Shown in pieces: positions 23,374-44,973 of a stretch of DNA of 64,000 nucleotides. The position numbers and the translations under genes were made by a program. Every line of letters begins with the position of its first letter. The stretch's first letter is position 1. The notes below the pieces were generated by a model. The model searched no databases. It was given only the letters and a program-made list of their open reading frames with translations, and was not told the origin of the DNA. The stretch spans positions 1,086,746 through 1,150,745 of the forward strand of contig JAGNLV010000001.1 of assembly GCA_017999435.1 (NCBI GenBank), read 5' to 3'. The stretch is from Candidatus Zixiibacteriota bacterium (GTDB taxonomy: Bacteria > Zixibacteria > MSB-5A5 > GN15 > FEB-12).

Positions 23374-26814
<3,441 letters not shown>

Positions 26815-26856
26815 GCGCTGTAGCTGCTTTCGTTCCCGCGGGCGGTCAGGCCCGCG

Positions 26857-26892
26857 CCAAACACAAAAACCCCTGGCCGTCGCCGACCGGGG
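26857..26892 (-). terminator. Rho-independent terminator after motB
   Basis: Read on the minus strand: CCCC GGTC, loop GGCGAC, GGCC (one bulged A) GGGG, then TTTTTGTGT. It separates the motAB transcript from mfd on the same strand. Confidence 0.7.
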
Positions 26893-26957
26893 AGGGTGGT
26901 TCACTCGTCGCTGGTATTATACACCGCCGGCGGGGCGGATGCCAGTTTTTTGCGCGC

Positions 26958-27824
26958 TCACTCCTGCGCTTCGGCCAGCGCCATCAGGTCGGCGCCCACT
27001 TCCATCTGATCGTACGCCATTGAGGCGTGTTCATAGAGCACGACGATCGTCACGCGGCGGTTGCGGGCGTCGGCCGGGTTGTCGGCGATCATCGGGAACT
27101 GCTCGGCGAACCCGCGCACCTCGCGCACCTGGCCGTCCCACAGCCCGTGCGCTTCCAGCAGTTCGCGGGCGGCGTTGGCCCGGTCGGCCGACAGCTCCCA
27201 GTTGGTATAGAGGAGGTCGCCGGTGTAGGCGGCGTCGGTGTGCCCTTCGAGCACAATCCGGTTCTGAAGGTGCCCGAGCTCCCCGGCGATCGTCATGAGA
27301 ATCACCGCGCTCTGGCGCAGGAGTTTGGCCGAGCCGGGTTCGAAGAACGCCGGAGACTCGGCCGACTCATTGAGGATGATCCGCAGCCCCTCGGAGGTCA
27401 ACTGCATCTTGACGTTGTCGCGGAGGCGGTGGAAAGCCTCCTGCTGCTCAAGCTGGCTGATGATCTTGAGGGCGGCCTCTTTCATCTGCTTCTTCTCCAT
27501 TTCGGAGGGGCCGCCGCCGGATTTGTCGCTTTCGTTCTTGAGCATCCCGGAGGGGGTATCTTTCTCGGTGATGGCGGAGCGCGAGCCTTTCAGGACGCCG
27601 GCGCCCCCCTGCTCGAGGTATTTGCCGGGATCGCGGAAGTAGCCGCCGACCGCTTCCCGCACCTCGGGTTTCTGCCCGACCAGCCACATGACCAGGAAGA
27701 AGGCCATCATGGCGGTCATGAAGTCGGCGAAGGCGACTTTCCAGGCCCCGCCGTGGTGCCCGCCGTGCACGTGCTTCTTGCGCCGTATGATGATCGGTTG
27801 TTCGTCGGCCATGGCTGCCGTCAC
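26958..27824 (-). CDS. motB: MotB-type flagellar stator protein
   Basis: Peptidoglycan-anchored stator subunit, 288 residues. Start taken as the GTG at 27824, which overlaps the MotA stop (GTGA); the in-frame ATG at 27812 is an alternative. A basic N-terminus (RRKKHVHGGHHGG) precedes one helix, KVAFADFMTAMMAFFLVMW, containing the proton-carrying aspartate. The C-terminal OmpA-like domain has LEGHTDAAYTGDLLYTNWEL and NPADARNRRVTIVVLY. No flagellin or export genes are in the window, so whether it drives a flagellum or another rotary or energised system cannot be told here. Confidence 0.92.
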   Translation of the reverse strand: MTAAMADEQPIIIRRKKHVHGGHHGGAWKVAFADFMTAMMAFFLVMWLVGQKPEVREAVGGYFRDPGKYLEQGGAGVLKGSRSAITEKDTPSGMLKNESDKSGGGPSEMEKKQMKEAALKIISQLEQQEAFHRLRDNVKMQLTSEGLRIILNESAESPAFFEPGSAKLLRQSAVILMTIAGELGHLQNRIVLEGHTDAAYTGDLLYTNWELSADRANAARELLEAHGLWDGQVREVRGFAEQFPMIADNPADARNRRVTIVVLYEHASMAYDQMEVGADLMALAEAQE

Positions 27825-28678
27825 CGCTTCTTGGTCTCGTTACAGGCTTTCTCGAGTTCGAGAAACGCGGGCCGGACCTCGGCGTAGAGGGAGCGGCGGG
27901 CGAACTCGACGGCGATGACGCCGGCAACGCCCTTGTGAAAGGACAGGAGCGCGTGCTTCATGCAACCGAGATACTGGCGCATGTCGTTGGTCCGGTGTTT
28001 GAGACTCGAAGAGAGAGGTCCGACGAAACCGTAAGCGCTCAGGATGCCGAGGAAGGTGCCGACGAGCGCGGCGGCGACCTTGTGCCCGATGACCTCCGGC
28101 GGACCGTCGATCGCGGCCATGGTGATCACCACGCCGAGCACGGCGGCGACAATACCGAGACCGGGGAGAGCGTCGGCAATCGCACCCAGGGCGGTCGACG
28201 GCCGCAGCTCCTCTTCGTGGAGGGTCTCGATGTCGGCGTCCATGAGGTCTTCGAGATCGTGCGGTTGGACGGCTCCGGAGATGATCACGCGCATGGTGTC
28301 GGTGAAGAACGCGACCGCATGGTGGTTCTTCAGAAACCCGGGATAGCGCTTGAATATCTCGCTCTCCTCCGGATGCTCGACGTGGCTCTCCAGGCCGATG
28401 AGGCCGTCTTTGCGCGCCACGTTGAAGATCTCGAACATCATGACCAGCAGGCTGAGGTAATCTTTCTTCTTGAGGCCGCCCCCGAGCGCCTGCTTGAGCT
28501 GCGCGAAGATGCCCCTGACCACGGGAAGCGGGGTGGAAATCAGCAGCGAGCCGAGGGCGGCGCCGCCGATGATGAGGAGTTCGGAGGGCTGGTTGAGGGC
28601 GAGGATTTTGCCCCCGTGGATGGTGTAACCGCCGAGGACACCGCCGAGGACGATCAGGGCACCAATGAATATGAACAT
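27821..28678 (-). CDS. motA: MotA-type stator proton channel
   Basis: Four-helix stator subunit, 285 residues. Two N-terminal helices (MFIFIGALIVLGGVLGGYTI and a second around residues 34-50), a cytoplasmic domain with charged residues (KDGLIGLESHVEHPEESEIF), and the channel helices beginning ALPGLGIVAAVLGVVITMAA with the conserved prolines. Four-base overlap with motB. No clear ribosome binding site before the ATG and no resolved promoter in the 230-base divergent gap upstream. Confidence 0.93.
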   Translation of the reverse strand: MFIFIGALIVLGGVLGGYTIHGGKILALNQPSELLIIGGAALGSLLISTPLPVVRGIFAQLKQALGGGLKKKDYLSLLVMMFEIFNVARKDGLIGLESHVEHPEESEIFKRYPGFLKNHHAVAFFTDTMRVIISGAVQPHDLEDLMDADIETLHEEELRPSTALGAIADALPGLGIVAAVLGVVITMAAIDGPPEVIGHKVAAALVGTFLGILSAYGFVGPLSSSLKHRTNDMRQYLGCMKHALLSFHKGVAGVIAVEFARRSLYAEVRPAFLELEKACNETKKR

Positions 28679-28908: not shown

Positions 28909-29694
28909 ATGCGGTTTTTTGGCGCAGTACTCCCCCCTCGACGGGGGTTGGCGGCCGGCCGGCTGGCCGGGTTTGTGGGCCTCGCGGCGCTGCTCGCGGG
29001 ACTGCTTCTCCCCCGCGCCTCCCTGTCTCAGCCGACGATCGACCTCTCCCGGCAGCGGATGCCGCAGGCGATGCCTGGCCGGGGCGCCAACCCGAACCCT
29101 TCGGCGCTGAAGGTCGCCCGCCTCCACTACTCCGGCGGCGGCGACTGGTACTGGGGGAGCTCAGCGCTCCCCAATTTCCTAACATACCTGAACCGGCAGA
29201 CCGATTTCCCGGTCGACACGATGGAGCGGGTGGTGACGATCATGGATGCCGACCTGTTCCGCTACCCCTTCCTGTTCGCGACCGGCCACGGGGTGATCCG
29301 GTTTGAGGCCGAGGAGCGGGAACGTCTGCGCCGGTATCTCGAGGGGGGCGGGTTTCTGTTCGTGAACGATTCCTACGGCATGGAGGAGACGTTCAAGAAG
29401 GAGATGGCGGAGCTGTTCCCGGAGCGGGAACCGGTGGCGGTGCCGTTCGACCATCCGATTTACCGCTGTTTCTACGATTTTCCCAACGGTCCGCCGAAGA
29501 TCCACGAGCACGACGGCCAGCCCCCGCGGGCGTGGGCGATCATTCTCCACGGCCGGATCGTGCTGTATTTCCTGGTGGAATCGGACATCGGGGATGGCTG
29601 GGAGGATCCGCAGGTGCACAATGACCCGCCGGAACTGCGGGAACAGGCGTTCCGGATGGGCGTGAACCTGGTGACCTACGCCTTGTTGTACTAG
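28909..29694 (+). CDS. DUF4159-family exported protein
   Basis: 261 residues from the ATG at 28909; an in-frame ATG at 28882 is possible, but neither has a ribosome binding site. A TATATTAT stretch ends only five bases before 28909, so a leaderless transcript is conceivable. Signal peptide (GFVGLAALLAGLLLPRASLS), then a DUF4159 domain: PFLFATGHGVIRFEAEERERL, EGGGFLFVNDSYGMEETF, FDHPIYRCFYDFPNGPPKI and SDIGDGWEDPQVHNDPPELR. In other bacteria this family lies beside MoxR/DUF58/VWA aerotolerance-type clusters; here the DUF4175-like gene follows 110 bases later. Molecular function unknown. Confidence 0.8.
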   Translation: MRFFGAVLPPRRGLAAGRLAGFVGLAALLAGLLLPRASLSQPTIDLSRQRMPQAMPGRGANPNPSALKVARLHYSGGGDWYWGSSALPNFLTYLNRQTDFPVDTMERVVTIMDADLFRYPFLFATGHGVIRFEAEERERLRRYLEGGGFLFVNDSYGMEETFKKEMAELFPEREPVAVPFDHPIYRCFYDFPNGPPKIHEHDGQPPRAWAIILHGRIVLYFLVESDIGDGWEDPQVHNDPPELREQAFRMGVNLVTYALLY

Positions 29695-29752
29695 TCGGGC
29701 TGCGCGAGATTACCTGCCGGGCCGGCGGCCTACCTGTCGATAGAAAGAATGC

Positions 29753-29774
29753 GCGGCTTCGCCGGCGAAGCCGC
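29753..29774. repeat. 22-base perfect palindrome between the DUF4159 and DUF4175-like genes
   Basis: GCGGCTTCGCC immediately followed by GGCGAAGCCGC. It can form an 11-bp cruciform or RNA hairpin. It lacks a T-run, so it is more likely a processing, attenuation or protein-binding site than a terminator. Confidence 0.6.
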
Positions 29775-29804
29775 CGCCTGAGACCGAACACCGAGGGTAT
29801 CGCT

Positions 29805-32800
29805 ATGACCGAGTTGACCTCCCGCCGCGCGCTCCTTGCCAAGCTCACCGGGGTGCTGGTGCGCCAGCGCGCAGTGCTGTTTGTATCCGGCGTCATGTTG
29901 ACGGCCGCCGCGGTGACGGCGGCGGCGATCGGGCTGTCGCTGTGGGCGAACGTGATGATTCTGCCGGTGGCGGTGAAGCTCCCGGTCCTGATCGCGGTCG
30001 GGGCGGGAACGCTCTATCTGTTCGGGCGGTACGCGGTCGCCCGGCTGTTTTCGGGGTCGATCGATGCGGTGGCGGTCGCGCTGGAGGAGCGGAACCCCGA
30101 GCTCAAGGGGCGGCTGATCGCGGCCATTCAGTTTGCGCGGATGAAAGACGCGGGGTGCTACTCGGCGGCCCTGATCGAGGCGACCGAGCGCCAGGCGCTC
30201 GCGCGGGCCCAGGGAGTGAATTTCAACCAGGCGCTCTCGTTCTACCCGGTGCTGCGCAGCGGGCGGTATTTCGCGACCGCGGCCGCCGCGGCCCTCCTGG
30301 TCGTGGCCCTCCTGCCGGGGATGTTCCGCTACTCGTTCCTCGTGTTCTCCAACCCGACGACCGAAATCGCCCCTCCCCTGGCCTACAAGGTGGTGCCGTT
30401 CCCCGGGACGACCGAGTGGGTGAAGTACCGGGACATCGAAATCGGGGCCTCCATTTTCGGTGAACGGCTCCCGGAAAGCGCGGTCATTCACCACCGGCTG
30501 GTCGACGGGAACTGGCAGGAGACGGAGATCGACTTGCGGAAGGTGCGGCGGGCGCCGATGGTCAACGGCGACTCGGTGCGGATTGCGACCACTCTCCGCC
30601 AGATCAACCGGTCGTTCGACTACTATGTCGAGGCGGGCCGGGTCGCCACCCCGGTCCAGCAGGTGAGCGTGGTCGACCGCCCGAGGGTCAACGGCCTCAA
30701 GCTGTCGATCTTCTACCCCGACTACACCGGGCTGGCCCCGACTGTGATCGACGAGAACAACGGCTCGTTCTCGGCCGTGGTCGGGTCGCGGGTGAACCTG
30801 GCGGTCGAGACCAACCTCCCGGTCGCGCGGGCCGAGCTGGTGTTTGACGATTCCAGCCGGACGCCGCTGGAGGTCGACGGGCGGCAGGCGGAAACGGCGC
30901 TCCGCGTGGACAAGTCGCTCGGCTACCATGTCCGCCTGATCGACGGCCTGGGCGAGGAAAACCCCGACCCGATCCAGTACCACATCACGGCCGTGCCCGA
31001 CGAATACCCCTCGATCGACGTCCTCTTCCCCGGCGTCAACGTCAACCTGAGCGACGAAATGGTGCTGCCGCTGAAGGTGCGGATATTCGACGACTACGGG
31101 TTTACCTCGCTGGTGCTGAAATACACGGTGGTGGCGCACGGACAGGCGAGCGAGGAGAACGTGGCCGTGCTCCATTTCTCCGACCGGATCAAGACCGAAG
31201 GGGAGATCGCCTTCAACTGGGACATGGACAAGCTCAACATGTACCCGGGGGATTACACGATCTATCGCTTCGAGGTGGCCGACAACGACGTGAACTCGGG
31301 GCCGAAAGTGACGGCGTCGCGGCAGTACGTGGCGCGGATCCCCTCGCTGGAGGAAATCATCGCCGAGGCGGAGGGGGAAAGCTCGCGGCGCGTGGACAAC
31401 ACCCGGCAACTGCTCCAGCAGGGGGAGGACCTGTCGGAGCGGTTCAAGAACATGGCGCGCAAGCTCAAGGCGCAGAACCGCGACGAGATGAAGGCGGAGT
31501 GGCAGCACCAGAAGGAGATGGAGGCGCTCGCCGCCCAGAACCAGGAGCTCATCGAGAATATCGAGAAAATGGCCGAGGAGATGGACAAGTCGGTCGAGAA
31601 GCTCGCCGACAACGCCCAGATGAGCCGCGAGATTGTCGAAAAACTCCAGCAGATCCAGAAGCTGTTCGAGGAAGTCGCCACGCCGGAAATGAAGGAGGCC
31701 CAGAAGAAGCTGATGGAGGCGCTCCAGAAAATGGACCGCAACGAGATCCAGAAAGCCATGGAGCAGTTCCAGCTCTCCCAGGAGGAAATGCTCCAGCGGC
31801 TGGAGCGGACGCTGGCCCTCTTGAAACAGATGCAGGTCGAGCAGAAGATGCAGGCAATGATGCGGCAGGCGGAGCGGCTGCTCGAACAGCAGAACCAGGT
31901 CAACCAGGCGACCGACAGCAGCGCCCAGAGCGCGCTGCCGCCCTTGGCCGAACGCGAAACGGACCTGAAAAAAGATCTCGAGTCGCTCAAAAAGGAGACC
32001 GCCGACCTTCGCAAGCTGATGGACGAGGCGCAGATGAACCAGAGCGAGGAGGCGCGGAAATTCGCCGAGGCGGTCGAGCAGACCGACGCCGACCGGAACA
32101 TGGAAAAGATGAGCGGCGCGCTCGCCCAACAGCAGCAGCAGCCGGCCGCCGCCGAGGGAAAACAGGCCTCGGCCAAGCTCGCCCAGATGCTCAGCTCCAT
32201 GCAGCAGCAGCTCGCCGCCATGAACAGCGGCCAGAACGAAGCGCTCCGCAAGATGATGCGGCTGGCGATCGACGACGCCAACTACCTGTCGCAGTCGCAG
32301 GAAGAGCTGCTCAAGCGGGCGGCCGAGGTCACCACCCAGTCGGATATCCTGCGCGAGCTCGCCCAGTCCCAGCAGGATCTCATGACCGCGTGCAGCGGGC
32401 TGAAGGGCCGGATCGCGGAGCTGGCCAAGGAGTCGCCCTTTGTCGCCTCCGAACTGGGGCAGATCATGAACCAGGCGACGGCGCAGATGGACATGGCCAT
32501 GCTGGGGCTGGGCGACCGGCAGGGACCGCAGGCGATCGCCCTCCAGCGCGACGCCATGACCAACCTCAACAAGGTGTCGCTGTACCTCATGGAGGCGATG
32601 AACCAGCAGAACCAGTGCGACAAGGGGGGCAGCTGCGACAAGAACATGGCCAAGCTGCAGTCGATGTGCAACAAGCAGAACCAGGTGAACCAGGAGACGC
32701 AGCAGACCTGCAACAACCCGTCGTTCAACCCGGCCAGCCAGGGCCAGCAGACGCGCGAGGCGCTCCAGCGGCTGGCGGGCGAGCAGGGTGCGATCCGCAA

Positions 32801-33209
32801 GTCGATGGAAGAGCTGGCGCAGGAGTTCGGCGACTCCCGCCAGGTGCTCGGGCGGCTCGAGGACATCGCCGACGAAATGAGGGAAATCGAGGAGGCGCTG
32901 GCGGAAGGCGAGGCCGGACCGGAAACGATCGAACGACAGCTCCGCGTTTACTCCCGCATGCTGCAGGCCTCGCGCTCGCTCCAGCGCAAGGATTTCACCG
33001 AGCAGCGCAAGGCGGTCACGGCGGAGGAGCAGATCTACCAGGTGCCGCCGGCGCTCCCGGCCGAGCTGCTCAACGACCGGACCAATCTCGAGGACCGGCT
33101 GCGGCAATATCTCGGCGAGCACTACCCTCGGCAGTACGAGGAACAGGTGAAAGCGTATTTCAAGGCGCTGCTGCAAACGGAGGCGGCGCCGCAGGAGGGC
33201 GGGCGGTGA
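29805..33209 (+). CDS. DUF4175-like giant membrane protein with long coiled-coil region
   Basis: 1134 residues. Two or three N-terminal helices (about 23-47, 50-68 and 148-165). Residues about 195-510 form beta-sandwich modules (VVPFPGTTEWVKYRDIEIG, LKLSIFYPDYTGLAPTVIDE). From about 520 to 1115 there is an uninterrupted helical, Gln/Met/Glu-rich coiled coil (EALRKMMRLAIDDANYLSQS) with a Cys-containing patch around 940-975 (CDKGGSCDKN). The layout matches DUF4175-type proteins. It probably spans the periplasm from an inner-membrane anchor. The TGA overlaps the GTG of the TPR gene, so the two are co-translated. No catalytic motif seen. Confidence 0.78.
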   Translation: MTELTSRRALLAKLTGVLVRQRAVLFVSGVMLTAAAVTAAAIGLSLWANVMILPVAVKLPVLIAVGAGTLYLFGRYAVARLFSGSIDAVAVALEERNPELKGRLIAAIQFARMKDAGCYSAALIEATERQALARAQGVNFNQALSFYPVLRSGRYFATAAAAALLVVALLPGMFRYSFLVFSNPTTEIAPPLAYKVVPFPGTTEWVKYRDIEIGASIFGERLPESAVIHHRLVDGNWQETEIDLRKVRRAPMVNGDSVRIATTLRQINRSFDYYVEAGRVATPVQQVSVVDRPRVNGLKLSIFYPDYTGLAPTVIDENNGSFSAVVGSRVNLAVETNLPVARAELVFDDSSRTPLEVDGRQAETALRVDKSLGYHVRLIDGLGEENPDPIQYHITAVPDEYPSIDVLFPGVNVNLSDEMVLPLKVRIFDDYGFTSLVLKYTVVAHGQASEENVAVLHFSDRIKTEGEIAFNWDMDKLNMYPGDYTIYRFEVADNDVNSGPKVTASRQYVARIPSLEEIIAEAEGESSRRVDNTRQLLQQGEDLSERFKNMARKLKAQNRDEMKAEWQHQKEMEALAAQNQELIENIEKMAEEMDKSVEKLADNAQMSREIVEKLQQIQKLFEEVATPEMKEAQKKLMEALQKMDRNEIQKAMEQFQLSQEEMLQRLERTLALLKQMQVEQKMQAMMRQAERLLEQQNQVNQATDSSAQSALPPLAERETDLKKDLESLKKETADLRKLMDEAQMNQSEEARKFAEAVEQTDADRNMEKMSGALAQQQQQPAAAEGKQASAKLAQMLSSMQQQLAAMNSGQNEALRKMMRLAIDDANYLSQSQEELLKRAAEVTTQSDILRELAQSQQDLMTACSGLKGRIAELAKESPFVASELGQIMNQATAQMDMAMLGLGDRQGPQAIALQRDAMTNLNKVSLYLMEAMNQQNQCDKGGSCDKNMAKLQSMCNKQNQVNQETQQTCNNPSFNPASQGQQTREALQRLAGEQGAIRKSMEELAQEFGDSRQVLGRLEDIADEMREIEEALAEGEAGPETIERQLRVYSRMLQASRSLQRKDFTEQRKAVTAEEQIYQVPPALPAELLNDRTNLEDRLRQYLGEHYPRQYEEQVKAYFKALLQTEAAPQEGGR

Positions 33210-35077
33210 AGCGCACCCTCGGGCGGCTGATCGCGGCGCTCGCGCTGGCCGCAGGACTTCTGGGCGCGGCCCTCGCGCAAGCGGCGGAGGAACCGAAAGA
33301 GGTCACCCGGCCGCCGGGCGGACTCCGCCTGTACACCCCGCAGGATCAGCAGGCGCAGGACCAGCAAATGCTGAACATGGTGCGGGAGATGATGCGCAGC
33401 AAGAACTACGAGGGAGCGGTCGGCCTCCTCGAAGCTATCGACCGCCGCGACCGCGGGAACATGGTGGTGATGAACCTCCTGCGCACATGCTACGACCAGC
33501 TCGGGCAGCCGGGGAGCTCGGAGGTGGTGATCCGGCGCATGCTCGAGATCACCCCGAACAGCCACGTCCTGCATGTCTACCTGGCGGAGGCGCTGGTGCG
33601 CCAGGAGGACACGGCCGCGGGGCGGCAGGAGTACGCGACCGCGCTTGAGCTGGTGCCGGAGAAGACCAACCCGGGCATGCTGTCGCAGGTGGTCGTGAGC
33701 ATGCAGGAGGTGGGGCTGAGCCGCGACGTCCTCGCTCTCATCGAGCGCCTGCGGAGAGAGCTCGGCTCCCCGCGGCTGTTCGCCAAGGAAGCGGGCGAGA
33801 TATTCGAGGCCCGCGAGGAGTACCGCCGCGCGGCCGAGGAGTTCTACGCGGCCACCGCCGATACCTCGCGGACAGGGATCGAGGCCGAGACCAAGCTGCA
33901 GATGATGCTCCAGTTCCCCAAGTCGGCGCCGGCCGCGCTTGGGGTTCTTCGGGAGCACACCGCGGACACCCTGGCGACGGCGAAAGCGGCGCAGATTCTC
34001 GCCGGCCACTACCTCCAAGCGGGCGACATGGACCAGGCGATGCACTACACGCTGCTGCGCGATTCGCTCGCGGGGACCAACGGGACGGTGCTGCTGTGGT
34101 TCATGCACATCTGCAGCGAGCGGGGTCTGTACGCGCAGACGACCGTGGTGGGGGCGGAAATCCTGCGGCGCTACGGCGCCAGCCCGCTGGTGGCCGAGGC
34201 CCGCTACCTCTACGCCGAGGCGCTCACGAGGCTGGGACGGTACGCCGAGGCGGTCGCCGTGTACGATTCGATCGTGGCGGCCTACCCGCGCGTCCAGGAC
34301 AAGGCCGAGGCGGCCTGCCGGATCGGGCAGATATATCTCAACTACCTCAACGAGCCGCGGCGGGCGCTGCGGCTGTTCGATTCCGTGGCGGCCGCCTACC
34401 CCGGGGGGCTGGGGTATTTGCGGGCCCTCCTGGCGGCGCCCGACGCCTACCTTCGCCTCGGCGAACTGGACAGCGCCCGGACGGCACTCGGGCGGCTGGC
34501 GCAGCGGCCGCTCATAGAAGAAGCGGCCGAGGAAGCGGCCTTCAAGCTGGCCAAGATCGATTTCTACGAGAAGCGGTTCGACACGGCGCGGGCGGGCTTC
34601 AACAAACTCCTCGTGGCCTACCCCAAGGGGTTCTATGTCAACGACGCGCTGCAAATGATGCTGCTGATCGACGAGGCGGGGTCGGAACCGCTCCTGTCCG
34701 AGTTCTCCGACGCCCTCCTCTTCGAGGAGCGGCGCGAGTACGATTCCTGCCGGGCGGAGCTGGAGCGGATTGCCGGGGCGGACCACCCGGCGCTCAGCGA
34801 CGACGCGCTCTACCGGCTGGCCGATTTGAGCATCGCCCGGTTCGATTCCGCGGCCGCGCTGGAGTATATCGAGCGGCTGGCCGGGCAGTATCCCGAGTCA
34901 TACTTCGCCCCGTGGGGACTGAAGCTCAAGGGGGACATGCTCACGGCCGACCCCCGGCGGCGGGAGGAGGGCAAGGCGATCTACCGCCGGCTGCTCGAGG
35001 AGAACGCGAACTACCCGTTCACCTCGGACGTGCGCAAGCGGCTCCGCGAGCTCGAGGTCGATCCGCGGACGGGCTGA
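33206..35077 (+). CDS. Exported TPR-repeat protein
   Basis: 623 residues from the GTG at 33206, which overlaps the previous stop (GTGA). Signal peptide (LIAALALAAGLLGAALAQAA). The mature protein is nearly all tetratricopeptide-like helical pairs, for example NYEGAVGLLEAIDRRDRGN, YRRAAEEFYAATADTSRTG, RYAEAVAVYDSIVAAYPRV and ARAGFNKLLVAYPKGFYVND. TPR arrays are protein-binding scaffolds; coupling to the DUF4175-like gene suggests a periplasmic partner. No terminator visible in the 18 bases before the convergent small gene. Confidence 0.85.
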   Translation: MKRTLGRLIAALALAAGLLGAALAQAAEEPKEVTRPPGGLRLYTPQDQQAQDQQMLNMVREMMRSKNYEGAVGLLEAIDRRDRGNMVVMNLLRTCYDQLGQPGSSEVVIRRMLEITPNSHVLHVYLAEALVRQEDTAAGRQEYATALELVPEKTNPGMLSQVVVSMQEVGLSRDVLALIERLRRELGSPRLFAKEAGEIFEAREEYRRAAEEFYAATADTSRTGIEAETKLQMMLQFPKSAPAALGVLREHTADTLATAKAAQILAGHYLQAGDMDQAMHYTLLRDSLAGTNGTVLLWFMHICSERGLYAQTTVVGAEILRRYGASPLVAEARYLYAEALTRLGRYAEAVAVYDSIVAAYPRVQDKAEAACRIGQIYLNYLNEPRRALRLFDSVAAAYPGGLGYLRALLAAPDAYLRLGELDSARTALGRLAQRPLIEEAAEEAAFKLAKIDFYEKRFDTARAGFNKLLVAYPKGFYVNDALQMMLLIDEAGSEPLLSEFSDALLFEERREYDSCRAELERIAGADHPALSDDALYRLADLSIARFDSAAALEYIERLAGQYPESYFAPWGLKLKGDMLTADPRRREEGKAIYRRLLEENANYPFTSDVRKRLRELEVDPRTG

Positions 35078-35095: not shown

Positions 35096-35344
35096 TCAGT
35101 AGGTCTCCAGCTTCTTGCGCCCCTCTTCGAGCGTGCGGACGCGGCGCTCCAACTGGAACACCTTGTCCTGGTAGCTCTCCACCTTCTTCTCCTTCATCTT
35201 GGTCGTCGTGCGCACCAGGAGCGCGAGCGACACGAGCATGAAGAAGACGGAATTGACCTGGCGGAAGATCATGCCCATGTTGAACACGGAATCCAGAAAG
35301 GCCAGGATTCCCAGCACGAAGAGCAAACTGCACCATACAAACAT
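35096..35344 (-). CDS. Small membrane protein with C-terminal coiled coil
   Basis: 82 residues, unrecognised. Two short hydrophobic helices (VWCSLLFVLGILAFLDSVF and VNSVFFMLVSLALLV) are followed by a basic, heptad-patterned helix (KVFQLERRVRTLEEGRKKLE). GGAGG precedes the ATG by five bases. It converges on the TPR gene with an 18-base gap. The shape is typical of small scaffold or regulator proteins of the inner membrane; no function assigned. Confidence 0.7.
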   Translation of the reverse strand: MFVWCSLLFVLGILAFLDSVFNMGMIFRQVNSVFFMLVSLALLVRTTTKMKEKKVESYQDKVFQLERRVRTLEEGRKKLETY

Positions 35345-35500: not shown

Positions 35501-38269
35501 GTGGCTGACTTATCTCTGACGGACCCGGACAAGTTCGACCGGACGAACGCCGTGGCGGCGGGGGCGGTGTTTCTGGTGTCGTTCATTACGTACGCGCTGA
35601 CGGTGCAGCCGACGTTTTCATTCTGGGATTGCGGCGAATTCATTGCAACGTCGTACATTCTGGGGATCCCGCACCCGCCGGGGACCCCCCTGTTTATCCT
35701 CCTGGGACGGATCTTCTCGGTCATCCCCTTTGTGGAAGATATTTCCCACCGGATCAACTACATCTCCGTGATTACGTCGGCGTTCACGGCTATGTTCAGC
35801 TACCTGCTGACGGTCCGGCTGGTGCAGTACTTTTTCGGGGAGCAGCGGCGGGAGTTGCTCAACCGGGTGATTTCGTACGTGGGCGGCGTGGTCGGCGGGC
35901 TGTTCGTGGCCTTCTCGCGGACCAACTGGGGGAATTCGGTCGAGGCGGAGGTGTACGGAGCGGCCCTGGCCCTTTCGGTCATGATCATCTGGCTGGCCGT
36001 GCAGTACCACGACGCCCGCGGAACCTCGAAAGGGATCCGGCTGCTCATCTTGATCTTCTATCTGGCGATGCTGGGGATCGGGCTGCACATGACGGTGTTT
36101 CTGGTGGTGCCGGTGGCCGCCTTCTTCCTTCTGTTCAACCGGGACGCGGTGCCCCGCGACTACGCCTATCTGGCGGCCTTTGTGGGACTCGAGCTGCTGC
36201 TGATTGTGCTCTTTTCGGGCGACCGGGGCGGGCCGGTGGCGTTCTACCTGACCACGGTGCTGTTGGCGGCGCTGCTGGTGGTCCTGCTGTACCGCAAGAT
36301 CAACTGGGCGATCCTGATTGCGCTGGCGGCGGTGTCGACGGTGATGATCAGTTTCTCGCTGTTCATGGAGGCGCTGCCGTTTTTCGTGGTGCTGATGATT
36401 GGGCTGGCGGTGGCGGCGCACCGGCGCGGCTGGCGGTTCCAGTGGTTGACCGGGCTGGGGCTGATCGTGGTGGCGGTGCTGGGGATTTCGGTCCACGCCT
36501 TCATCCCGATTCGCTCGGCCCACAACCCGCGGATTGACGAGAACAACCCCTCACGCAACTGGTCGACCTTCGTGAAGTTCCTCGACCGCAAGCAGTACGG
36601 ATCGGAGTCGATGGTCGACCGGATGTTCCACCGCCGCGGCACCTGGGAGAACCAGTTCGGCCACCACCCCCACATGGGGTTCTTCTCCTACTTCGAGGAG
36701 CAGTACTCGCCGAAAGACTGGGGGTTCGTGCCGTTTCTCGGGCTGGGACTGCTCGGGGTGATTGTCGCCGTGCGCAAGCGCCAGGAAATCGGGCTGCCCT
36801 ACCTCGTGCTGCTGGTGGTGACCTCGGCCGGGCTGATCCTGTACATGAATTTCGCCGACGGCACGCAGTACGATCCGCGGACCGGGGACGCCTACCTCGA
36901 GGTGCGCGACCGGGATTACTTTTTCACGCCCGCGTTCGTCTTTTTCGGCATCGCGATCGGCATGGGAGTGTCGGCGCTGATGATGCTCGTGCGGGAGGCG
37001 CTGGCGCGGCGCAATCCGGCGATCGAGCGGACGGCGGTGTACGCGATGACGGCGCTGGTGTTGCTGCCGGCGGTGCCGCTGGCCCACAACTACCACGCCA
37101 ACGACCGCTCCGACAACTACCTCCCCTACAACTATGCGGCCAACCTGCTCGATTCCGTCGACAAGAACGCCATCCTCTTCACCTCGGGCGACAACGACAC
37201 TTTCCCCCTCTGGGCGATCCAGGAGGTGTACAACTACCGCAAGGACGTCCGGGTGGTCAACCTCTCGCTGCTCAACACCGACTGGTACGTCTACCAGATG
37301 AAGCACTTCTACAATGTCCCGATCTCGCTGGAGGACGACCAGATCCTCTGGGAGGACGTGGAGGTGCGGCCGGGGCTGACGCTGCCGATGCCGGTGAAGG
37401 AATTCCGGGACCGTCCGCGCAACCGGACGACCTGGCTGGCGGCCGTGGAGCCGTACAACGGGCAGATGGTCAAAGTGCAGGACATGATGGTCGACGAGAT
37501 CGTGGTCGAGAACAGGTGGAAGGATCCGATCTTTTTCTCCAGCCAACCCTATGATTCTCCGCTGGATCTGCAGAAGCGAACGGCGGCGGTGGGCGTGGTC
37601 TACCGCCTGGACCGCACCCCGCCCGAGCGGCTGATCGACGCCGGGCGCGGCTACGACCTCTTCATGCACACCTACCGCTTCCAGGGGTACGAGGACTCGA
37701 AAGTGTACCGGGACGAGAACGCGACCGGCGTGTTTATCGGCTACGGCATCAACGCCGTGCGGCTCTGGGATGAATTCGAGAAGCGCGGGCAGCTGGACTC
37801 GGCCATGGCCATTGCGGACAAGATCATGAAGGAGTACCCCGAGTACGCGCAGATGTACATGATCGTGTCGAACGAACTGCGCCAGCAGGGCGACACGGCG
37901 GCGGCCGATTCGCTTCTGCGCCAGGCGCACGACACGCTCACCGCGTTCTGCCGCTCCAACCCGGAAAACCTGTTCTACCTGAGCGACCTCGGGCTCATCA
38001 AAGTCAGCATCGGCTCGATCTCCGGGCGCCAGGATCTGCTCGACGACGGGCTCGCTCTCATGTGGGAGGCGTTCCGGGCCAACCCCGAAAGCGGCACGGC
38101 CTTCCGGAAACTCTTCTACGCCCTCAGCGACCAGCGGCGCTACGCGGAAATCCAGGAGGCGGCCCGCCTGCATGCCTCGTATCCGCGCAATCTCGAGGAT
38201 CCGTTCCTGCAGCAGCTCCTCGGCCTGACCCAGTCCACCCCCCGCATCCCCCCGGGGGCGGGCCAGTAG
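35501..38269 (+). CDS. DUF2723 (GT117-like) membrane glycosyltransferase with TPR tail
   Basis: 922 residues, GTG start at 35501 with GGAGGAG upstream. The N-terminus is the DUF2723 signature: FITYALTVQPTFSFWDCGEF followed by ATSYILGIPHPPGTPLF, with the Asp/Glu of the first loop as the expected GT-C catalytic site. About twelve membrane helices to residue 560, then a periplasmic part (FTSGDNDTFPLWAIQEVYNY) and TPR-like helices near the C-terminus (EYAQMYMIVSNELRQQGDTA). Relatives include human TMEM260, an O-mannosyltransferase placed in GT117. A role in protein or surface glycosylation is likely; donor and target unknown. Confidence 0.85.
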   Translation: MADLSLTDPDKFDRTNAVAAGAVFLVSFITYALTVQPTFSFWDCGEFIATSYILGIPHPPGTPLFILLGRIFSVIPFVEDISHRINYISVITSAFTAMFSYLLTVRLVQYFFGEQRRELLNRVISYVGGVVGGLFVAFSRTNWGNSVEAEVYGAALALSVMIIWLAVQYHDARGTSKGIRLLILIFYLAMLGIGLHMTVFLVVPVAAFFLLFNRDAVPRDYAYLAAFVGLELLLIVLFSGDRGGPVAFYLTTVLLAALLVVLLYRKINWAILIALAAVSTVMISFSLFMEALPFFVVLMIGLAVAAHRRGWRFQWLTGLGLIVVAVLGISVHAFIPIRSAHNPRIDENNPSRNWSTFVKFLDRKQYGSESMVDRMFHRRGTWENQFGHHPHMGFFSYFEEQYSPKDWGFVPFLGLGLLGVIVAVRKRQEIGLPYLVLLVVTSAGLILYMNFADGTQYDPRTGDAYLEVRDRDYFFTPAFVFFGIAIGMGVSALMMLVREALARRNPAIERTAVYAMTALVLLPAVPLAHNYHANDRSDNYLPYNYAANLLDSVDKNAILFTSGDNDTFPLWAIQEVYNYRKDVRVVNLSLLNTDWYVYQMKHFYNVPISLEDDQILWEDVEVRPGLTLPMPVKEFRDRPRNRTTWLAAVEPYNGQMVKVQDMMVDEIVVENRWKDPIFFSSQPYDSPLDLQKRTAAVGVVYRLDRTPPERLIDAGRGYDLFMHTYRFQGYEDSKVYRDENATGVFIGYGINAVRLWDEFEKRGQLDSAMAIADKIMKEYPEYAQMYMIVSNELRQQGDTAAADSLLRQAHDTLTAFCRSNPENLFYLSDLGLIKVSIGSISGRQDLLDDGLALMWEAFRANPESGTAFRKLFYALSDQRRYAEIQEAARLHASYPRNLEDPFLQQLLGLTQSTPRIPPGAGQ

Positions 38270-43154: not shown

Positions 43155-43182
43155 TTGGCGGGGGGCTGAAATGGGGTATACC
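43155..43182 (+). promoter_or_regulatory. Sigma70-like promoter for the C39-like/dockerin gene
   Basis: TTGGCG at 43155-43160, 16-base spacer, TATACC at 43177-43182. It overlaps an upstream in-frame ATG (43171), which argues that translation starts later, at 43273. Confidence 0.5.
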
Positions 43183-43272
43183 TTTAATTGTCATCAGTTC
43201 ATCTATCCGGGACGTGTCCTCATGGCCGTTACAGAAGCTGTCGGTTTTCCGATGGCTGTTCGGAGGTGCACG

Positions 43273-44973
43273 ATGAACCAACGCAGGTGTCGATTCGCGT
43301 ATGCGGAGACGATCTCCGCGCTCTTGGCCGTGATTTTCGCGGTCGCCCCAGTATTCGCCCAGCAGAGCACAACCGGCCCCGAACCGCCGCCCGGCATCGA
43401 TCGCGGGCTGGCGCCGCCCGTACGGGGGACGGTGGTGCTGGACGTAACGGCGTACCTCTGGCACCACGGGTGCGGCCCGACAGCCGCCGGCATGGTGATG
43501 GGGTACTGGTCGATGAACGGGTACGAACAGCTGGTCAAATATGGCGTGCCGGCTATGATTGCCGGCGATCACGGGGATTCGGTGTGCGGCGCTCCGATCG
43601 GCGACCACTACCACGATTACTCATGCCCGATCGACGGCGGGAGTCCGATTCCGGACATGTCGGAGCTCGGGGGGGCGCATACGAGCGACTGCATCGCGGA
43701 CTTCATGAGAACATCCTGGAGCGCCGCCTACAACCTGTACGGGTGGAGCTGGTTTGTGGACGTGGGGCAGGCGCTGCTGGCTTACCCTCCGTACGCGGAT
43801 CCGACCTACACGCATTTTCGGATGCGGGAGCTGGATTTCTCGAGCGTGTCGTTTACCGACTACAAGGCGGAGATCGACGCGGGGCGACCGACCGTATTCC
43901 TGGTGGACACCGACGGCAACGGGGTGACGGATCACTTCGTGACCGGAATTGGCTACTCGGAAGACCCGCCGAAGTATGGGGTGCACGACACGTGGGACCA
44001 GTCGATCCACTGGTACTTGTGGCGTGCCATTGCCCCCGGCGTGAGCTGGGGAATATACGGCATGCATTTTTTCGGCCCGGCTGTCAGTTTCTCCGCTGCC
44101 CCGCGCTTCGGGGATATCTCGCTCGAGGTCCAGTTCACGGGGCAATCGTTTGATCCGCCAGATTCATGGCAGTGGGATTTCGGCGATGGCCAGTCCTCCT
44201 CGGTGCGATCCCCCAGCCATCAGTTCACCGCCCCGGGGATTTACGATGTCTCGCTCACGGCAACCTTCGCCGGCGAGCCGATTTCCTCTCTGCGCGAGGA
44301 TTTCATTATTGCCTTGGCCGACTCGCTTGCCGGTCAGGATCAATTGGTCGAGGGCGGCAGCGAAGTCGAAGTCGTGATTTCGGCCTCGAACACGGTCCCG
44401 CTCAAGGAGATACTGATTCCCCTGTCGTACGCGGGGACACTCGACCTGACCCTGGTGTCGTTCTCGACTGCGGGTTGTCGGACAGACTATTTCGAATCGA
44501 CCGGCTATTTTGATTTCGCGCCGGGACGGGATCAGGCGACGATCTACCTCATCAGTTCAACCGCAGGTACTTCGCCGGAGCTTGCAGGCGGGAGTGGCCC
44601 CGTGGTCAGGCTCACGTTTTCCACCGGCTCGGCGGGGCCGGGGGATTCGGCGGTTATAAGTATGTCCGGGTATTCGACGTACTCTCCGCGATTCTCCGGT
44701 TCTCTGCTGGCCTACACGCCGAAGACCTTATCCCCGGTCCTCAGGTATGCGGAGTGCTGCGTAGGTGAACGTGGCGATGTGGACGGCGACGGGTCAGTCA
44801 AGATTTCCGATGTCACCGCCCTGGTCTCGTACTTCTTCCGGGATGGAGAACCGCCGGCGTGCAATGACGAGGCGGACAGTGACGGCAGCGGAGTTCTGAA
44901 CATCGCCGACCTCACGTATCTGATCGGCTACCTGTTTCGGGGCGGACCCGTACCGGCGCTGTGTCCGAGATGA
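43273..44973 (+). CDS. Secreted C39-like peptidase with PKD, cohesin-like and dockerin domains
   Basis: 566 residues from the ATG at 43273, preceded by GGAGGTG; the frame is open to 43171 but that start falls inside the promoter. Signal peptide ends near VFAQQ. Residues about 50-260: C39/papain-like domain with C67 in HHGCGPTAAGMVMGYW, H221 in TDHFVTGIGY and an Asp in VHDTWDQ. Residues about 280-345: PKD domain (WQWDFGDGQSSSVRSPSHQF). About 350-490: cohesin-like beta-sandwich (VEVVISASNTVPLKEILIPL). C-terminus: dockerin pair (GDVDGDGSVKISDVTALVSY, NIADLTYLIGYLFRGG). Exported; substrate unknown. A cohesin-like and a dockerin domain on one chain could mediate assembly. Confidence 0.82.
   Translation: MNQRRCRFAYAETISALLAVIFAVAPVFAQQSTTGPEPPPGIDRGLAPPVRGTVVLDVTAYLWHHGCGPTAAGMVMGYWSMNGYEQLVKYGVPAMIAGDHGDSVCGAPIGDHYHDYSCPIDGGSPIPDMSELGGAHTSDCIADFMRTSWSAAYNLYGWSWFVDVGQALLAYPPYADPTYTHFRMRELDFSSVSFTDYKAEIDAGRPTVFLVDTDGNGVTDHFVTGIGYSEDPPKYGVHDTWDQSIHWYLWRAIAPGVSWGIYGMHFFGPAVSFSAAPRFGDISLEVQFTGQSFDPPDSWQWDFGDGQSSSVRSPSHQFTAPGIYDVSLTATFAGEPISSLREDFIIALADSLAGQDQLVEGGSEVEVVISASNTVPLKEILIPLSYAGTLDLTLVSFSTAGCRTDYFESTGYFDFAPGRDQATIYLISSTAGTSPELAGGSGPVVRLTFSTGSAGPGDSAVISMSGYSTYSPRFSGSLLAYTPKTLSPVLRYAECCVGERGDVDGDGSVKISDVTALVSYFFRDGEPPACNDEADSDGSGVLNIADLTYLIGYLFRGGPVPALCPR

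What the first reader, a model, noticed from the sequence alone, without database searches (positions are those of the whole stretch)
28909..35077. DUF4159 - DUF4175-like - TPR envelope operon
Three exported or membrane proteins of largely unknown function are consecutive; the last two are translationally coupled. A giant inner-membrane coiled coil plus a periplasmic TPR partner looks like a trans-envelope structure. It lies divergent from motAB, without the MoxR/DUF58/VWA genes usually nearby.
Basis: partly seen in the sequence, partly recalled or inferred. Interest (0 to 1): 0.58.

Follow-up and report, generated by a model that had tools for sequence, protein, structure and literature searches.

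The report
Conserved envelope gene trio of Zixibacteria
Three neighbouring genes for proteins of the bacterial cell envelope are nearly always kept together in this phylum and recur in related phyla, often with a fourth protein; the motility genes next to them here are probably only neighbours by accident, and what the set does is still unknown.

Summary
DUF4159 (28909-29694), DUF4175 (29805-33209) and an exported TPR protein (33206-35077, 4-bp GTGA overlap) are consecutive; DUF4159 and DUF4175 are single-copy. The host is a Candidatus Zixiibacteriota bacterium. DUF4159 is in 119 and DUF4175 in 117 of 132 genomes of the phylum. In 78 neighbourhoods I fetched, DUF4175 follows DUF4159 in 78, TPR follows in 67, motAB is in 0 and MoxR/DUF58/Bat in 0. 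SecF lies upstream in 39 of 78; in this genome SecDF sits 42 kb away in mirror-image order, so the motAB neighbour looks like the product of a rearrangement. A full MoxR-DUF58-Bat cluster lies elsewhere. The trio recurs, often with 4-bp overlaps, in 22 of 41 non-Zixibacterial loci; there a fourth conserved exported protein ('LKAYG') often follows, also present in 117 of 132 Zixibacteria. DUF4159 has a class-I glutamine-amidotransferase-like fold without the cysteine. I read it as a widespread inner-membrane/periplasmic envelope module. The mechanism is inferred, not shown.

The parts
28909..29694 (+). DUF4159 protein, 261 aa (270 aa from ATG 28882); one N-terminal hydrophobic stretch, then a class-I glutamine-amidotransferase-like domain without catalytic Cys
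29805..33209 (+). DUF4175 protein, 1134 aa: three predicted membrane helices, Ig-like beta domains (about 194-511), long multi-helix region (about 515-1127)
33206..35077 (+). exported TPR protein, 623 aa, GTG start overlapping the DUF4175 stop by 4 bp
35096..35344 (-). small convergent gene, 82 aa, two hydrophobic stretches and a charged tail; matched in 59 of 78 loci
35501..38269 (+). conserved downstream neighbour, DUF2723 / TMEM260-like protein O-mannosyl-transferase family (PF11028), in 51 of 78 loci; own transcription unit likely
27821..28678 (-). motA (neighbour, not part of the unit)
26958..27824 (-). motB (neighbour, not part of the unit)

Best explanation
The trio is the window's copy of a widespread cell-envelope module found in Zixibacteria and related phyla. 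Shown: conservation, order, overlaps and domain make-up. Predicted: the fold of DUF4159 and the topology. Inferred: DUF4175 sits in the inner membrane by three helices and holds an Ig-like and helical scaffold in the periplasm; the TPR protein is exported and docks on this scaffold as an adaptor; DUF4159 is an exported ligand- or metal-binding subunit with a pseudo-amidotransferase fold; the 'LKAYG' protein, encoded elsewhere in this genome, is a fourth and possibly catalytic subunit. Most likely the module helps exported proteins or envelope layers to be built or kept intact just after Sec export, and does not move flagella. It carries no ATPase of its own, so energy, if needed, would come from elsewhere (SecDF or MoxR in trans).
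For: DUF4159 119 of 132, DUF4175 117 of 132, LKAYG 117 of 132 genomes of the phylum. DUF4175 next after DUF4159 in 78 of 78 fetched loci, TPR next in 67 of 78, exact 4-bp overlap DUF4175/TPR in 20. In 22 of 41 non-Zixibacterial loci DUF4175 follows DUF4159, with exact 4-bp overlap in 15 of the 22; TPR follows in 20 of these 22. 13 of 13 chosen outgroup genomes hold DUF4175 and 13 of 13 the LKAYG protein; DUF4175 in 210 of 296 Bacteroidota. Export context: secF upstream on the same strand in 39 of 78 loci, within 1 kb in 26; three PpiC/SurA-type prolyl isomerase genes precede DUF4159 in the KSB1 locus annotated. Topology and fold. Invariant pocket residues in DUF4159: TGHG His, ND Asp and both His of HxH in 158 of 158 sequences. 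Literature: in Rhodobacter sphaeroides a TIGR02302 protein (the alphaproteobacterial DUF4175 relative; that link is recalled) and a MoxR gene are directly activated by the envelope regulator CenR with tol and mlaC (PMC9275681, passages).
Against: No interaction, localisation or phenotype was tested. secDF linkage is seen in only half of the loci, and the rest have varied upstream genes. TPR was not found on the same strand after DUF4175 in 11 of 78 loci, among them all five f19 loci; L081 ends at the contig end and L039 has a cut DUF4175. In the three Bacteroidota loci DUF4159 and DUF4175 are unlinked, and the neighbours of DUF4175 in the one locus annotated (ybeY, mnmG) say nothing on function. 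One 98% complete genome, G123, lacks both DUFs, so the module is not indispensable. The NCBIfam scan of the window DUF4175 gave no family, TIGR02302 included. The DUF4175 model has pTM 0.38.
Confidence: 0.5

Rival explanations
1. The module is the substrate or output arm of the MoxR-DUF58-Bat system and acts with it in trans: MoxR and DUF58 remodel or assemble the DUF4175/DUF4159 complex.
For: In Poribacteria (L139) DUF4159 stands in one close-packed run DUF58 - BatA/VWA - GATase1-like - 255 aa - DUF4159, while DUF4175-TPR-LKAYG stand together on another contig of that genome. DUF58 is in 125 of 132 genomes of the phylum, and the window's genome has a full MoxR-DUF58-Bat cluster. MoxR and TIGR02302 genes are both CenR targets in Rhodobacter (PMC9275681, passages). 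The Rhizobium RL3499-RL3502 mutant has envelope defects (known only from citing passages).
Against: No MoxR/DUF58/Bat gene near the trio in 78 of 78 loci. Both sets are near-universal in the phylum, so co-occurrence does not discriminate. G123 keeps DUF58 but lacks both DUFs.
Confidence: 0.22
2. The module serves the type IX secretion system typical of these phyla.
For: SprA is in 117 of 132 genomes of the phylum. The gene upstream of DUF4175-TPR-LKAYG in Poribacteria has a Por_Secre_tail domain. The Bacteroides control genome gave no match for DUF4159, DUF4175 or SprA.
Against: G123 has SprA but neither DUF; G011, G041 and G068 have both DUFs but no SprA match. DUF4159 also occurs in Caulobacter and Haliangium (4i66). 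No T9SS gene was identified near the trio in Zixibacteria, though most neighbours were not annotated.
Confidence: 0.12
3. The trio belongs to motility, as a partner of the divergent motAB stator.
For: motAB is directly divergent in the window.
Against: motA and motB match 0 of 78 other loci. The window arrangement is explained by a rearrangement: secF-secD and further genes lie 42 kb away in mirror-image order, while relatives keep secD-secF-DUF4159.
Confidence: 0.01
4. The trio is a client of the neighbouring TMEM260-like O-mannosyl-transferase, which would modify the Ig-like domains of DUF4175.
For: The transferase gene lies just downstream in 51 of 78 loci; it matches PF11028 with 166.5 bits; DUF4175 has predicted Ig-like domains.
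Against: It is a separate unit behind a convergent gene and was not found near the trio in the non-Zixibacterial loci beyond a weak hit in L135. Substrates of the bacterial enzyme are unknown to me.
Confidence: 0.05

Closest known systems
DUF4159 family (PF13709), solved member Hoch_4089 of Haliangium ochraceum (PDB 4i66)
   Same: Sequence profile hit 6.6e-15; model superposes with Z 24.6, rmsd 1.8 over 185 residues
   Different: 4i66 is deposited as an uncharacterised protein; residues invariant in Zixibacteria (HxH, ESDxGDGWED) are not kept in it in the alignment
DUF4175 family (PF13779)
   Same: 82.2 bits over profile 176-757 of 825
   Different: Only the Ig-like and helical part is covered; NCBIfam gives no hit
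MoxR-DUF58-Bat (aerotolerance) operons and Rhizobium RL3499-RL3502
   Same: Envelope proteins with Ig-like and TPR parts; DUF4159 joins such an operon in Poribacteria
   Different: No AAA+ ATPase, DUF58 or VWA gene at the trio in 78 of 78 loci; the window's genome has that cluster separately
Class-I glutamine amidotransferases (HisH, GMP synthetase) and the IFT52 N-terminal domain
   Same: Fold of the DUF4159 model (Z about 8-10)
   Different: No Cys at the nucleophile position; Asp is invariant there

Membership tests
DUF4159 (PF13709) | match above the curated cut-off over the whole domain | tested here: met
   209.9 bits, cut-off 25.9, profile 2-202/202
DUF4175 (PF13779) | match above the curated cut-off | tested here: met
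   82.2 bits, cut-off 27.3, profile 176-757/825
TIGR02302 (alphaproteobacterial DUF4175-like family) | NCBIfam model match | tested here: not met
   0 NCBIfam families at E up to 1 for the DUF4175 protein
Active class-I glutamine amidotransferase | fold | tested here: met
   model of DUF4159, Z about 8-10 to HisH and GMP synthetase
Active class-I glutamine amidotransferase | Cys nucleophile after the central strand | tested here: not met
   NDSY at that place; Asp in 158 of 158 and no invariant Cys in the alignment
MoxR-DUF58-Bat operon | MoxR, DUF58 and VWA genes at the locus | tested here: not met
   none in 78 of 78 loci; separate cluster in the own genome
Type IX secretion system part | occurs only with SprA and is needed for secretion | tested here: inconclusive
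   co-occurrence near-universal; single exceptions both ways; need not testable here
Flagellar stator accessory | conserved linkage to motAB | tested here: not met
   0 of 78 loci
Trans-envelope complex | physical association of the three proteins across the periplasm | not testable with these tools
   no complex prediction available; topology only

The most novel reading that the evidence does not exclude
DUF4159, DUF4175, TPR and the LKAYG protein form a so far undescribed envelope machine of several related phyla, working directly behind the Sec exit: the DUF4175 scaffold and TPR adaptor hold newly exported proteins while the LKAYG enzyme (Cys, His and Glu kept in 31 of 31 rows) modifies them, and DUF4159 senses a ligand or metal through its invariant His/Asp pocket.
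Probability: 0.2. Interest if true: 0.75.

Novelty: new variant of a known kind. Interest (0 to 1): 0.5.

Why it matters
A gene set kept in nearly all members of a phylum and in several related phyla, made wholly of exported or membrane proteins without a known function, points to a basic envelope task outside the model Gram-negatives. No paper in the held library names DUF4159, and one names DUF4175. The phyletic pattern and the extra LKAYG partner make the question testable in culturable Bacteroidota or Gemmatimonadota.

Tried and rejected
Motility link: rejected. Redundancy with a second DUF4159/DUF4175 set: rejected, single copies. Foldseek of the DUF4175 model gave only generic Ig-like chains with low TM-scores, no helpful relative; a profile search of solved structures gave only weak coiled-coil and helical-bundle matches. 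AdvA of Acinetobacter carries a reported DUF4175 domain (PMC7481262, passages); I did not compare it and do not treat it as an orthologue. Plasmid collection: one DUF4159 hit in Corynebacterium, one DUF4175 hit in Gemmatirosa; not informative. The hairpin between DUF4159 and DUF4175 is a perfect palindrome, but the region does not fold better than shuffles. Promoter scan: none found. A search for TMEM260 with O-mannosyl and bacteria listed 4 papers, read as a listing only; a search for Zixibacteria papers was likewise read as a listing.
Full report
What is there. The window carries DUF4159 (28909-29694; first in-frame ATG 28882), DUF4175 (29805-33209) and a TPR protein (33206-35077) on the + strand. 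The first gap is 110 bp; the last two genes overlap by the 4 bases GTGA. Pfam confirms DUF4159 (209.9 bits), DUF4175 (82.2 bits) and TPR repeats. In the own genome DUF4159 has one place, and DUF4175 has two matched stretches in the same frame of one gene, so both are single-copy.

Whose genome. A scan of GTDB genomes with a DUF4159 alignment returned mostly Candidatus Zixiibacteriota records as the nearest, so the window's phylum is taken as Zixibacteriota.

Conservation. In 132 genomes of the phylum DUF4159 is found in 119 (75 of 78 of the better ones) and DUF4175 in 117 (73 of 78). I fetched 78 neighbourhoods from other genomes. DUF4175 follows DUF4159 on the same strand in 78 of 78, within 700 bp in 75; a TPR gene of the same family follows in 67 of 78, with exactly 4 bases of overlap in 20. 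The convergent 82-aa gene is matched in 59 of 78 and the DUF2723/TMEM260-like gene in 51 of 78.

motAB is accidental. MotA and MotB of the window have no match in any of the 78 loci in the ORF comparison; one weak MotB stretch appeared in L081 by tblastn. SecF lies upstream on the same strand in 39 of 78 loci, within 1 kb in 26. In the own genome secF-secD lie at C1:1073769-1076439 on the minus strand, followed by the same further families (8, 10, 48, 38, 29) that flank secDF in relatives, in mirror-image order; DUF4159 starts 42 kb away. One rearrangement, most simply an inversion with a breakpoint between secF and DUF4159, explains this; a translocation is not excluded.

MoxR/DUF58/VWA. The own genome has two DUF58 genes. 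One stands in a full cluster: MoxR, DUF58, two proteins without a Pfam family, BatA, VWA, TPR, BatD, TPR, without DUF4159 or DUF4175. DUF58 is in 125 of 132 genomes. No MoxR, DUF58 or Bat gene was found in the 78 loci. In Poribacteria (L139), however, DUF4159 follows DUF58 and BatA genes, while DUF4175-TPR-LKAYG lie on another contig; this is the best link between the two systems.

Beyond the phylum. Of the 80 loci I counted 41 as not Zixibacterial by title: DUF4175 follows DUF4159 in 22, 2 lack room, 17 lack it; TPR follows in 20 of the 22; DUF4159/DUF4175 overlap exactly 4 bases in 15 of 22 and DUF4175/TPR in 13 of 20. The 13 genomes that I picked from these all hold DUF4175. In a sample of 296 Bacteroidota 210 hold it. 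In KSB1, Gemmatimonadota and others a gene of about 420 aa follows TPR. This 'LKAYG' family (my name) is in 13 of 13 of those genomes and in 117 of 132 Zixibacteria, 76 of 78 of the better ones, in the own genome at C1:853509-854735, far from the trio. Its Cys, His and Glu motifs are kept in 31 of 31 rows, which are 26 distinct genes by my count.

Context clues. KSB1 (L137): mfd and three PpiC/SurA-type genes before DUF4159. UBP1 (L133) and Krumholzibacteriota (L158): a histidine kinase of about 1600 aa directly before DUF4159, with secF 6-8 kb upstream. These fit an envelope role; none gives a function.

Structure. The DUF4159 model (pLDDT 84.3) matches 4i66 (Z 24.6) and then class-I amidotransferases (Z about 8-10). 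The nucleophile place reads NDSY; the Asp and three His are invariant in 158 of 158 sequences, which fits a metal or ligand pocket better than a Cys enzyme (inference). The DUF4175 model (pLDDT 77.8, pTM 0.38) has membrane helices, Ig-like domains and many helices; the two parts counted as cytoplasmic carry 5 and 7 Lys/Arg against 1 and 7 Asp/Glu, so N-in with the bulk in the periplasm is likely but not certain.

Literature. No held paper contains DUF4159; one contains DUF4175, on Acinetobacter AdvA (passages). In Rhodobacter sphaeroides RSP_0730 (TIGR02302) and RSP_1024 (MoxR) are direct CenR targets, both listed as non-essential (PMC9275681, passages). That TIGR02302 is the alphaproteobacterial counterpart of DUF4175 is recalled, and the window protein does not match that model. 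Vanderlinde 2011 on RL3499-RL3502 was not held and is known from citing passages only (PMC5118466, PMC3893208, PMC5700661); its gene content in terms of DUF4159/DUF4175 was not verified.

Verdict. The mechanism remains inference.

Noticed in passing
window 29753-29774: Perfect 22-base palindrome between DUF4159 and DUF4175, the only copy of its 16-base core in the window; T-rich after it on the minus strand, no better folding than shuffles.
   Followed up: partly
window 35096-35344, minus strand: 82-aa protein with two hydrophobic stretches and a charged tail, convergent to TPR and matched in 59 of 78 loci.
   Followed up: partly
window 35501-38269: TMEM260-like O-mannosyl-transferase family gene conserved just downstream in 51 of 78 loci.
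   Followed up: partly
L133:2992-7806 and L158:2907-7775: Histidine kinases of 1604 and 1622 aa with large N-terminal parts lie directly before DUF4159.
   Followed up: no
genome G123: 98% complete Zixibacterial genome without DUF4159 and DUF4175 matches but with LKAYG, DUF58 and SprA.
   Followed up: no
L039 (G025): DUF4175 frame is cut to 498 aa and followed by unrelated genes, possibly disrupted.
   Followed up: no
L188:7911-8528 (NZ_CP015623.1): A DUF4159 gene on a Corynebacterium crudilactis resistance plasmid, 46% identical over 67% of the query.
   Followed up: no
window 23374-26904, minus strand: mfd (transcription-repair coupling factor) next to motB; mfd also precedes DUF4159 in KSB1, possibly by chance.
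   Followed up: no
window 43171-44973: Protein with PKD and dockerin domains and a C39-like stretch.
   Followed up: no
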